DNA of 20,975 bases from a virus. Shown here piece by piece: positions 4,333 through 7,564 of the stretch. How positions within the stretch are numbered: position 1 is the first letter of the stretch; each line of letters starts with the position of its first letter. Made by a program: the position numbers and the translations under genes. The stretch covers positions 1-20,975 of IMG/VR virus record IMGVR_UViG_3300010158_003896, one strand, 5' to 3'. Under the pieces are notes generated by a model, which had not been told where the DNA came from, made no database searches, and was given only the letters and a program-made list of their open reading frames with translations.

Positions 4333-4833
4333 TTAGTCTAATATAGGTGCTTTCCATACTCCCGCAGGACTTCTCTGCATCACTTTAGCACTATCAGTAT
4401 CCTCTATTTGTATAATCTGTGGGCATAGTGAAGTACTTGGTAAAGCTGTTCTTTGAGCAGAAGTCCTTCTCCAATATTGACCAGCAGGGCGATTAACGAT
4501 ATATTGTAAATTTAGATAATTAGCAAAATTATTAGCCGTTACAACAACAGAACCAATTTTAATACTATCTCTCGATGGAGCATAATGTAGTGTGTCAAGC
4601 AATGTAGTTCCTGCATAGAACCGAATAATTGTATATGTGTATCCAACTACTTGAGCAGTATCTACATATGTGTTATTTTGAGGAGGGCAAACAACAATAG
4701 GCAATAGTATTCCTGTTTTGTAAATCTGAACATCACCATTTGGTGCCTGAACGATTGATAGATTCTGTGCGGATACGGGTTCACAACACGTAAACAGTAA
4801 CACAATGGTAAGTAATGCGATAATTTTTCTCAT
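4333..4833 (-). CDS. Secreted or periplasmic protein with signal peptide; moron-like
   Basis: This 166-aa protein starts with a classical signal peptide: Met-Arg-Lys, then a hydrophobic core (IIALLTIVLLF), then CCEPVSAQ. The likely cleavage is by signal peptidase I after VSA; the Cys pair does not form a good lipobox because Thr stands at -1. The mature part is Thr/Ile/Val rich, probably beta-structured, with two further Cys (VVCPPQ, SLCPQI) that could form a disulfide after export. The gene has its own promoter, lies between two strong terminators and sits inside the tail region, the organisation of a moron. Phage proteins of this kind often act on the host envelope, for example in superinfection exclusion, but nothing in the sequence proves that here. 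An exported virion accessory protein is the alternative. Confidence 0.7.
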   Translation of the reverse strand: MRKIIALLTIVLLFTCCEPVSAQNLSIVQAPNGDVQIYKTGILLPIVVCPPQNNTYVDTAQVVGYTYTIIRFYAGTTLLDTLHYAPSRDSIKIGSVVVTANNFANYLNLQYIVNRPAGQYWRRTSAQRTALPSTSLCPQIIQIEDTDSAKVMQRSPAGVWKAPILD

Positions 4834-4928: not shown

Positions 4929-5080
4929 CCGAATTCAACAGTTAAAAAACAGAACCTAAAGGTAAACGGTTTTGGGATATTAATCAAATAATTCAAAAGT
5001 GATTAATTTCTTCTAAAAATTTTCTAAAATAGAAGATTAGAAGATTTTCTATACGAAATTTTATAAGGAGAGAGCGAAAG

Positions 5081-5108
5081 CCCACTCATCAGCTTTGCTG
5101 TGGGTGGG
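5081..5108 (+). repeat. Left-end subterminal hairpin of the IS element
   Basis: CCCACTCATCAGC, a TTT loop, then GCTGTGGGTGGG fold into 12 pairs including one T-G wobble, with a single bulged T. The layout matches the right-end hairpin and is the expected recognition structure for a Y1 transposase. Confidence 0.8.
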
Positions 5109-5153
5109 ATGTAAGCGACCTACCACAAAAGTAATAATTATTTTAAATAAATC

Positions 5154-5183
5154 TTGCAGTTTCTTTAAACTTTTGTATATTTG
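5154..5183 (+). promoter_or_regulatory. Promoter of tnpB
   Basis: TTG at 5154-5156 is separated by 19 bases from TATATTTG at 5176-5183, a close match to the Bacteroidetes promoter. The ATG is only 17 bases beyond the -7 box, so the leader would be very short and carries no Shine-Dalgarno sequence. Confidence 0.6.
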
Positions 5184-5199
5184 TGCATATTTATAATTA

Positions 5200-6372
5200 A
5201 TGCTAAAGGCTTTTAAATATCGTTTATCTCCCACAAAGGAACAATCCATTCTGCTAAATAAGCATATTGGAGCAGCTCGTTTTGTGTATAATTTAGCATT
5301 AGAGTGTAAACAAATGGCTTGGGCTGGGAATAAAATTAATCTAAGTTGTTTTGCCTTGCATAGCCAATTAAAAGAACTTAAAAACGAATGTGATTGGTTA
5401 AAAGAGATTAATAGCCAATCCTTGCAGCAATCAATAACTAATTTAGATAAAGCATACACAGCTTTTTTTAAAGGACAAAATAGTTTTCCAAACTTCAAAA
5501 AGAAATCAAATGGTGGTAGTTTTAATATACCACAAAATGTACTTTTAAAAAATGAAAAGTTAGTTATTCCTAAATTCAAAAAAGGAATTGATATTGTTCT
5601 GCATAGACCGATTAAAGGAATAATAAGACAAGCCACAATAAGCAGAACACCAACTGGTAAATACTTTGTGTCTATACTTTGCGAAACTGGTGAAAAAATT
5701 AAACCTAAAACGAAGATTAAAGAAAGTACAACCATTGGAATAGATTTAGGAATTAAAACATACCTTGTTTCTTCTGATGGGAAAGAATTTGATAACCCTA
5801 AATACTTACGCAAAGCACAAAGTAAATTAAAATATGTGCAGCGTAAATATTCAAAACACAAAGGTAAAAGAACGAAGCATAAATTGGCTATACTACACGA
5901 AAGGGTAGCCAACCAACGTAAAGATTTTCTACACAAAACTTCAAGCGAACTCATCAAGAACCACGATAGTTTAGCGATAGAAGATTTAGCTGTTTCCAAT
6001 ATGATTAAAAACCACAAACTTGCACAGGCAATAAGTGATGCTGGGTGGTCAACTTTTGTAACTATGTTGGAATACAAATCAGAATGGTATGGCAAAAACA
6101 TTCTGAAAATTGGTAGATTTGAACCATCATCGAAGCTACACGCAAACTGCGGACACATAAACAAAGACCTAACTCTAAAAGATAGAGAATGGACTTGTCC
6201 GAAGTGTGGCGAAGTTGTTTCGAGAGATGTAAATGCTGCCATAAATATTAAATCATTTGCATTAAAAAATATCTTATCTGGAACGGATAGGAAAAATCAA
6301 GGTAAGTTGCCAACATTAGTTGGAGCGTTGACCCTTGAAGCCCAACCCATCGCCTATGGCGTGGGTGGGTAG
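5200..6372 (+). CDS. tnpB: TnpB, RNA-guided endonuclease of IS200/IS605 type
   Basis: A full-length 390-aa TnpB. It begins MLKAFKYRLSPTKEQ, the usual N-terminus, followed by the helical REC/WED part to about residue 175. The RuvC-like nuclease then follows: TIGIDLGIKT supplies the first Asp (about D182), LAIEDLAV the Glu (about E261) and SRDVNAAINI the last Asp (about D343). Between the last two lies the zinc ribbon, where the usual first Cys is replaced by His (KLHANC, H314 and C317), while the second CPKC pair is intact. The family cuts DNA next to a transposon-associated motif, guided by an omega RNA transcribed from the 3' end of its own gene, and helps keep the element in place. All catalytic residues are present, so it is probably active. 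The stop codon lies at the edge of the right-end hairpin. It is the only plus-strand gene in the window. Confidence 0.96.
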   Translation: MLKAFKYRLSPTKEQSILLNKHIGAARFVYNLALECKQMAWAGNKINLSCFALHSQLKELKNECDWLKEINSQSLQQSITNLDKAYTAFFKGQNSFPNFKKKSNGGSFNIPQNVLLKNEKLVIPKFKKGIDIVLHRPIKGIIRQATISRTPTGKYFVSILCETGEKIKPKTKIKESTTIGIDLGIKTYLVSSDGKEFDNPKYLRKAQSKLKYVQRKYSKHKGKRTKHKLAILHERVANQRKDFLHKTSSELIKNHDSLAIEDLAVSNMIKNHKLAQAISDAGWSTFVTMLEYKSEWYGKNILKIGRFEPSSKLHANCGHINKDLTLKDREWTCPKCGEVVSRDVNAAINIKSFALKNILSGTDRKNQGKLPTLVGALTLEAQPIAYGVGG

Positions 6373-6397
6373 TTCACAATGTGTTACCATTATCAAA
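6240..6397 (+). ncRNA. Predicted omega RNA (reRNA) with guide from flanking phage DNA
   Basis: Known TnpB systems transcribe the guide RNA from the tnpB 3' end and right element end, with the guide directly beyond the border. Here the scaffold would overlap the last tnpB codons and the hairpin at 6341-6369. If the border is at 6377, the guide would begin AATGTGTTACCATTATC. The 5' end is not determined. This is inferred by family analogy only. Confidence 0.45.
6341..6369 (+). repeat. Right-end subterminal hairpin of the IS element
   Basis: CCCAACCCATCGCC, a TAT loop, then GGCGTGGGTGGG form 12 pairs with bulged T and A. The foot AAGCCCA is shared with the left end. The tnpB stop codon begins directly after it. 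Confidence 0.8.
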
Positions 6398-6688: not shown

Positions 6689-7564
6689 TTACATCGCTTT
6701 CATAATTTGTAATAACTCATTATTTGTTATCTGATACAAATTACTACCCGTATTCTCCTTGATACTGATTATACTCATAGTTTTCTGTACTAATGGGGCT
6801 ATCATTGTTTCAGGATACGGTATTGTATCGGTTATTGCCGTAATTAATCCTGGCGTGGTGATATACATAATACTCACCAATTGCTGTGATATATCAGGGG
6901 AAATCTTAATCTCCCGTGGAACGGCTAATTGATAACCACCAAAGGTGCTTGTGTAATTACTGGCATTCAGATATGCCCATTGGGTAAATGTGCTTACACG
7001 GCTCTTAAAACCTGCTGAAAAACGATTAGTCTTTCTCTTGTTCCATTCTTCAATGGGTATCCTATTACACATATTAGTGCTGTCAATATGGGATAACTCA
7101 GGTCTAAATGTGCTTTGCTGTGGTTCCAACAAAGTTGTTCCTACAGCGTTCCATATTTGCGTTACAATTGGGGCATTATAAGTTTCAATACCAAAAAACG
7201 GGGCAATCTCCGTGTAATAGATTCCCGGTAAATTGGGTATTAAATCAGGAGCATCTAATACTACTACCGTTGGTAATGGCATAATTGCCAAAATTGTCCA
7301 ATAGTCTTTGCCGTTAGATAAATCAGCAGGGTTAAAAATAACCCCGCTGTATCTATTGGTTTGCCATACGTTAGTGTATGTTAATTCTCTAAATGTTTCT
7401 TCAGGAAACTTCTTTACCCCAATTAATGGAGTAATCACAGATACTGTCCACTCAATTGCTGAATTTATAGCAGGTTTAAAATCACGGTTAAAATCGAAAT
7501 AACCATTACCCTCTGCATCTAATTCAGATATTACTCGGTTTACAATCTCTTGAACAGTTATCAC
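6689..7564 (-). CDS. Connector/ring-type protein below the portal (GTG start)
   Basis: This 291-aa protein begins with an amphipathic helical region (TVQEIVNRVISELDAEG, then INSAIEWTVSVITPLIG), has a long beta-rich middle and ends with a helical segment (LVQKTMSIISIKENTG, NNELLQIMKAM). That N-terminal pattern is common in head-tail adaptor and ring proteins of tailed phages. Its position, last in the head block and upstream of the tail block, agrees. The start is GTG, three bases after the previous gene's TAG, and no ATG is available nearby; the string TAGTGAGTG carries two stops in different frames and the start. It is followed by a terminator. In a crAss-like phage it would correspond to one of the ring proteins next to the portal. 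This is inferred from order; no motif was recognised. Confidence 0.5.
   Translation of the reverse strand: MITVQEIVNRVISELDAEGNGYFDFNRDFKPAINSAIEWTVSVITPLIGVKKFPEETFRELTYTNVWQTNRYSGVIFNPADLSNGKDYWTILAIMPLPTVVVLDAPDLIPNLPGIYYTEIAPFFGIETYNAPIVTQIWNAVGTTLLEPQQSTFRPELSHIDSTNMCNRIPIEEWNKRKTNRFSAGFKSRVSTFTQWAYLNASNYTSTFGGYQLAVPREIKISPDISQQLVSIMYITTPGLITAITDTIPYPETMIAPLVQKTMSIISIKENTGSNLYQITNNELLQIMKAM

What the first reader, a model, noticed from the sequence alone, without database searches (positions are those of the whole stretch)
5059..6397. A TnpB guide nuclease element inside a phage, with predicted guide and empty site
The element has an intact TnpB, matching end hairpins and no TnpA. If the borders are right, the uninterrupted phage site would read TTTTAT joined to AATGTGTTACC, TTTAT or TTTTAT would be the transposon-associated motif, and the guide would copy the phage sequence at the insertion point. 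The nuclease would then cut relatives that lack the insertion, giving the carrier phage an advantage in mixed infection. Hairpins and residues are seen; the system role is family knowledge plus inference.
Basis: partly seen in the sequence, partly recalled or inferred. Interest (0 to 1): 0.7.

Follow-up and report, generated by a model that had tools for sequence, protein, structure and literature searches.

The report
Phage-borne TnpB guide-RNA transposon
A crAss-like phage carries a small transposon with an intact RNA-guided DNA-cutting enzyme (TnpB) and its guide RNA; it is one of a group of closely similar elements scattered through unrelated phages, which probably cut phage DNA copies lacking the element so that it is kept and spread.

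Summary
Window 5065-6377 is a 1,313-bp IS200/IS605-type element with an intact tnpB (5200-6372, D182/E261/D343), LE and RE hairpins and no TnpA in this 21-kb fragment of a distant crAss-like phage. Relatives at other sites (84-88% DNA identity) fix the borders: shared sequence ends at TTCAC (6377), and the next bases, the guide, differ at every site. The last ~105 nt form a covarying omega-RNA overlapping the tnpB 3' end (17 pairs with changes on both sides, 0 of 500 shuffles); synonymous divergence there falls about four-fold. dN/dS is 0.075.

Two corrections. Sister elements sit after TTTAC, not TTTAT, with identical TAM-contact residues, so TTTAC is the likelier preferred motif and this site's TTTAT may be weak or drifted. 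The empty site was not found: no relative of this phage and no copy of the 19-nt target is in the collections searched.

The homing role stays inference from published TnpB work. TnpB in phages, including crAss-like ones, is known. New here: a phage-borne lineage (11 of 12 members in viral contigs; absent from 197 other Bacteroidales-order genomes) whose inner clade has a Cys-to-His zinc ligand.

The parts
5059..5064 (+). TTTTAT, flanking motif left of the element (insertion site / putative TAM; sisters have TTTAC)
   Evidence: Left-end comparison of 12 loci
5065..6377 (+). IS200/IS605-type element, 1,313 bp, tnpB only
   Evidence: Same length as L005, L006, L007; similarity to unrelated contigs ends at 6377
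5081..5108 (+). left-end hairpin, preceded by foot sequence GCGAAAG
   Evidence: DNA fold z -3.8; conserved in L002, L003, L005-L007, L044
5154..5183 (+). putative Bacteroidetes-type promoter: TTG (5154-5156) and TATATTTG (5176-5183)
   Evidence: Conserved upstream of tnpB in most of the six relatives; promoter class from general knowledge
5200..6372 (+). tnpB, 390 aa; catalytic D182, E261, D343; zinc ligands H314, C317, C333, C336
6273..6377 (+). omega-RNA scaffold, overlapping the tnpB 3' end
   Evidence: Covariation in A1, RNA fold z -3.8, synonymous constraint
6340..6370 (+). right-end hairpin; followed by the terminal TTCAC at 6373-6377
6378..6397 (+). predicted guide (first about 16-20 nt of phage DNA after TTCAC)
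   Evidence: Columns after TTCAC are not conserved among 14 elements; in ISDra2 the last ~16 nt of the guide RNA come from flanking DNA (PMC8612924)
6572..6609 (-). terminator-like stem downstream of gene 6689-7564; the element lies in the intergenic gap between this and gene 4333-4833
   Evidence: consensus match only

Best explanation
A non-autonomous IS200/IS605-type transposon of a phage-borne TnpB lineage. Its tnpB transcript carries, at its 3' end, an omega-RNA scaffold that runs through the right end into phage DNA and so gains a guide copied from the insertion site. TnpB with this RNA would recognise the uninterrupted site, next to a TTTAY motif (TTTAC preferred), and cut it; the carrier copy is spared because RE, not the motif, lies next to the target. 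Repair from an element-bearing copy would restore the element after excision, or install it in a co-infecting related phage. Movement to new sites would need TnpA from another element. Shown by sequence: element, borders, omega-RNA structure, intact nuclease under selection, several distinct insertion sites in relatives. Inferred: cutting, the exact TAM, repair-coupled retention or homing, TnpA in trans.
For: Border agreement across relatives with unrelated flanks. Omega-RNA: 34 pairs, 96.6% of cells paired against 85.7% shuffled, 17 pairs with changes on both sides, 0 of 500 shuffles; slid controls collapse. Mean dS 0.85 in codons 1-340 but 0.21 in codons 346-390; dN/dS 0.075 in codons 1-340. 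Catalytic triad kept in all 41 aligned TnpBs. Precedents: guide from flanking DNA and TAM equal to the insertion motif (PMC8612924); TTCAC followed at once by guide, with TTTAA as TAM (PMC11043419); gene drive in plasmids (PMC11870625). TnpA elements with like ends exist in the record holding L003.
Against: No empty site or target found for this phage. The site motif is TTTAT whereas sisters with identical TAM-contact residues have TTTAC, so the element's own target might be cut poorly. The first zinc ligand is His instead of Cys; untested, though His commonly binds zinc. Nothing shows expression in infected cells.
Confidence: 0.8

Rival explanations
1. A passenger transposon with an intact nuclease that has no homing role between phages: it moves occasionally by TnpA in trans, and TnpB only restores it after excision in the same genome.
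For: No element-free relative with a target is known; unrelated insertion sites across phages; TnpB elements are common in bacteria and phages alike.
Against: The nearest lineage is found almost only in viral contigs (none in 197 other Bacteroidales-order genomes), which suggests that spread between phages matters; strong selection on nuclease and RNA.
Confidence: 0.35
2. A domesticated or nuclease-dead TnpB acting as an RNA-guided repressor (TldR-like) with a fixed target.
For: Phage-encoded TldR proteins exist (PMC13418256, abstract).
Against: Catalytic D182, E261, D343 intact; the guide region differs at each insertion site and equals the local flank; mobile ends intact.
Confidence: 0.03
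3. A decayed remnant: TTTAT instead of TTTAC and the changed zinc ligand mean that the system no longer works.
For: TTTAT differs from sisters; His at zinc ligand 1.
Against: The His is shared by all seven members of the inner clade, which are under purifying selection; no frameshift or stop; RNA helices kept. The motif lies outside the element and does not affect the nuclease.
Confidence: 0.1

Closest known systems
ISDra2 TnpB (Deinococcus radiodurans), PMC8612924 / PMC10097598, PDB 8bf8, 8h1j
   Same: Homology over nearly the full length (2.8e-66), same triad, guide RNA from tnpB 3' end plus RE plus flank, TAM left of LE
   Different: Flanking motif TTTAY not TTGAT (K76 that reads the G is S72 here, Q80 that reads the A is Q76); HCCC instead of CCCC zinc site; no TnpA; phage-borne
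Sulfolobus islandicus IS605-type TnpB7 (PMC11043419)
   Same: Right end ends in TTCAC with the guide starting at the next base; TTTA-type TAM (TTTAA)
   Different: Archaeal chromosome; last TAM base A; no sequence comparison made here
TnpB genes of epsilon crAss-like phages (PMC11054128)
   Same: TnpB inside crAss-like phages, present in some relatives only
   Different: Ends, guide RNA and lineage not described in the passages read; relation to this TnpB not tested
IS200/605 elements that gene-drive in plasmids (PMC11870625)
   Same: Proposed mode of spread: cut element-free copies of a multi-copy replicon
   Different: Shown for plasmids in the laboratory; not for phages and not for this element

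Membership tests
TnpB (OMEGA RNA-guided nuclease) | RuvC triad D/E/D and TNB domain | tested here: met
   D182, E261, D343 aligned to D191, E278, D361 of ISDra2 TnpB; TNB domain PF07282
TnpB (OMEGA RNA-guided nuclease) | zinc finger in the TNB domain (four Cys in ISDra2 TnpB) | tested here: inconclusive
   First ligand is His314 in this clade of seven (HCCC); the other three Cys are kept. All-Cys is not met; zinc binding by HCCC is plausible but untested. Many features place it in TnpB, so this marks a variant site, not a different family
TnpB (OMEGA RNA-guided nuclease) | structured guide RNA at tnpB 3' end and RE, ending in flanking DNA | tested here: met
   Covariation and synonymous constraint, fold; transcription not shown
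TnpB (OMEGA RNA-guided nuclease) | RNA-guided cleavage of TAM-flanked DNA | not testable with these tools
   Needs a cleavage assay
IS200/IS605 element | subterminal hairpins and conserved cleavage sequences at LE and RE | tested here: met
   Hairpins, TTTAY|LE and RE TTCAC| conserved across loci
IS200/IS605 element, autonomous form | Y1 transposase TnpA | tested here: not met
   PF01797 absent from this fragment, so filed only as a tnpB-only, non-autonomous derivative. TnpA elements with like ends occur in the record of L003
TldR (nuclease-dead TnpB repressor) | lost RuvC triad, fixed guide | tested here: not met
   Triad intact, guide region differs at each site
Crassvirales-like phage (host of the element) | crAss muzzle, portal and ring proteins | tested here: inconclusive
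   Muzzle PF25731 34 bits over cut-off 27, portal phrog_6547 5.8e-9, ring protein 2 only E 0.04; no nucleotide relative

The most novel reading that the evidence does not exclude
A TnpB lineage that has become specific to phages, probably of Bacteroidota (11 of 12 members in viral contigs, the twelfth on a phage-like contig of a MAG), moving between unrelated phages and acting as an RNA-guided homing nuclease in co-infections, with a clade-wide HCCC zinc site.
Probability: 0.35. Interest if true: 0.55.

Novelty: new member of a known kind. Interest (0 to 1): 0.35.

Why it matters
It gives a phage setting, with defined borders, guide RNA, guide and two candidate motifs, in which the proposed gene-drive role of TnpB can be tested between phages as it has been in plasmids. 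If the lineage is phage-specific, TnpB joins HNH and other homing nucleases as a means of inter-phage competition, with a guide that changes with each insertion instead of being fixed.

Tried and rejected
Empty-site search by joined 17-mer TTTATAATGTGTTACCA: 4 hits, about what chance gives for a collection of this size, none near homologous proteins. Relatives of the phage by gene 6689-7564, the putative capsid gene and the portal: none in IMG/VR, none in INPHARED by DNA or by capsid or portal protein; terminase gave one 9% local match. These IMG/VR scans need exact peptide patterns, so distant relatives can be missed. Restored reading frames on joining the flanks of L002, L007 and L114: shifts of the border by a few bases give ORFs nearly as long, so this does not prove the borders and is not used. 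Lysozyme relatives of the L002 site are too diverged at the gene end to read a junction. Empty-site relatives of L007 and L114 by their joined proteins: none. Nuclease-dead TldR reading rejected on the intact triad. Rfam has no match at gathering threshold. A second target of the guide inside the window: none but the element's own right junction.

Full report
What is there. The window is a 20,975-b virus record with late phage genes on the minus strand: muzzle (Pfam PF25731, 34 bits, cut-off 27), a portal like phrog_6547 and a weak ring protein 2 match, so probably a distant crAss-like phage. Between genes 4333-4833 and 6689-7564, in an intergenic gap, lies an element on the plus strand. Its ORF 5200-6372 encodes a 390-aa TnpB, homologous over nearly its whole length to ISDra2 TnpB. 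Hairpins lie at 5081-5108 and 6340-6370.

Borders. IMG/VR holds TnpBs 88-92% identical in six contigs (L002-L007, of which L003 and L004 share one site) and more distant ones; one more is on a Bacteroidales MAG contig (L044). DNA similarity ends at window 6377, or within 3 b of it, in the close ones. In an alignment of 14 right ends all share GGGTAGTTCAC, and the next 20 columns are not conserved. On the left, TTTAC precedes LE in L002, L003, L005, L006, L007, L044 and L011, and TTTAT in the window, L036, L111, L113 and L114. The element is therefore 5065-6377, 1,313 bp, the same length as in L005, L006 and L007. The flanks differ, so the elements have moved. Restored frames at joined flanks do not discriminate between neighbouring borders and are not used as evidence.

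Guide RNA. RNAalifold on the 14 right ends gives 34 pairs. On that structure 96.6% of cells pair against 85.7% in shuffles; 17 pairs carry changes on both sides (8.6 in shuffles, 0 of 500 reach it); slid versions fall to 34-43% paired. The window's own RNA folds at -43.3 kcal/mol, z -3.8. Among seven close tnpB genes mean dS is 0.85 in codons 1-340 and 0.21 in codons 346-390; dN/dS in the first part is 0.075. In L009 and L010 the ORF has a stop just before the terminal hairpin while the RNA end is kept. So the tail of the ORF appears to be selected as RNA more than as protein. The scaffold is 6273-6377 and the guide should start at 6378, as in Sulfolobus TnpB7, where the guide follows UUCAC (PMC11043419), and as in ISDra2, where the guide comes from flanking DNA (PMC8612924).

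Motif. The sisters have TTTAC. In ISDra2 the last TAM base is contacted by Y52 and S56, the A before it by Q80 and the G by K76 (PMC10097598). By alignment these are C50, H54, Q76 and S72 here, and the window and its TTTAC sisters are identical at all four. Q for the A and loss of the K for the G fit TTTAY. So TTTAC is the likelier preferred motif. The foot of LE is GAAAG in the window and GAAAG-like in the TTTAC sisters, and GTAAAA or GTAAAT in the other TTTAT elements and in L011. I infer that this site was TTTAC and drifted, or was used through a G-T pair. An empty-site sequence would decide.

Enzyme. D182, E261 and D343 are present, as in all 41 TnpBs aligned. The first zinc ligand, Cys in all other rows, is His314 in all seven members of the inner clade. 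This is shared and under selection, so unlikely to be damage; its effect is unknown.

Where the lineage lives. The tree puts the window in a well-supported group of 12, of which 11 come from viral contigs. The twelfth, L044, is on a 109-kb MAG contig with endolysin, ParB-like, PAPS reductase and methyltransferase genes, which looks like a phage or other mobile element. Of 198 genomes of that MAG's order only the MAG itself has a match at 1e-100. The sampling is uneven (peptide patterns taken from the window), but the genome collection is very large (257 billion bases) and gave one close hit. TnpB as such is common in phages: 401 INPHARED records match, none at 60% identity or more, and TnpB has been reported in epsilon crAss-like phages (PMC11054128).

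TnpA. None in this fragment. In the record of L003 a TnpA element has the same kind of ends (TTTTAT|AAGACGGAGCGTAAAACCC ... GGGTAGTTCAC; L111), so TnpA in trans is plausible, not shown.

How it probably works. TnpB with this RNA would cut the uninterrupted site; the carrier is safe because TTCAC, not the motif, adjoins the target (one search finds no other target in the window). Repair from a carrier copy then keeps or installs the element. Retention and gene drive are published for other TnpBs (PMC8612924, PMC11870625, PMC10278001). In a phage that replicates to many copies per cell this should work as in multi-copy plasmids; that step is inference. No target or empty relative was found, so the claim of advantage in mixed infection is open.

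Verdict. A real, well-preserved member of a known kind, with a likely phage-borne lineage and an unusual zinc site as the points worth following.

Noticed in passing
L114:1436-3183: An IS605-type element with TnpA and intact ends in which most of tnpB is replaced by a 277-aa ORF with a PDFYL...WVDIKGKF (PD-(D/E)XK-like) motif, leaving only the TnpB C-terminus and RE: possibly a homing nuclease taken into a TnpB element. No Pfam hit.
   Followed up: partly
L012:4950-6170: A related TnpB (68%) with intact triad but no LE hairpin and a shortened RE stem, packed between a nucleotidyltransferase-like and an epimerase-like gene whose ATG overlaps the RE; may be an immobilised or domesticated copy.
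   Followed up: partly
L113:1046-2853: An IS605-type element interrupts a PhoH-like gene (PF02562, 1.7e-18) of a phage record.
   Followed up: no
L009 and L010:5001-6184: tnpB has an early stop just before the terminal hairpin while the RNA end is kept, which suggests that the protein tail is dispensable.
   Followed up: partly
window 1-20975: The phage has no detectable relative in IMG/VR for three structural genes and none in INPHARED by DNA: a deep, poorly sampled crAss-like lineage.
   Followed up: partly
window 5061-6242 (-): A 393-aa open frame runs antisense to tnpB; long antisense frames also occur in several relatives (L002, L005, L044, L036), probably a codon-usage shadow.
   Followed up: no
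L036:9740-9862: A second right end of the same kind, apparently without an intact tnpB before it: a remnant or a minimal mobile form.
   Followed up: no
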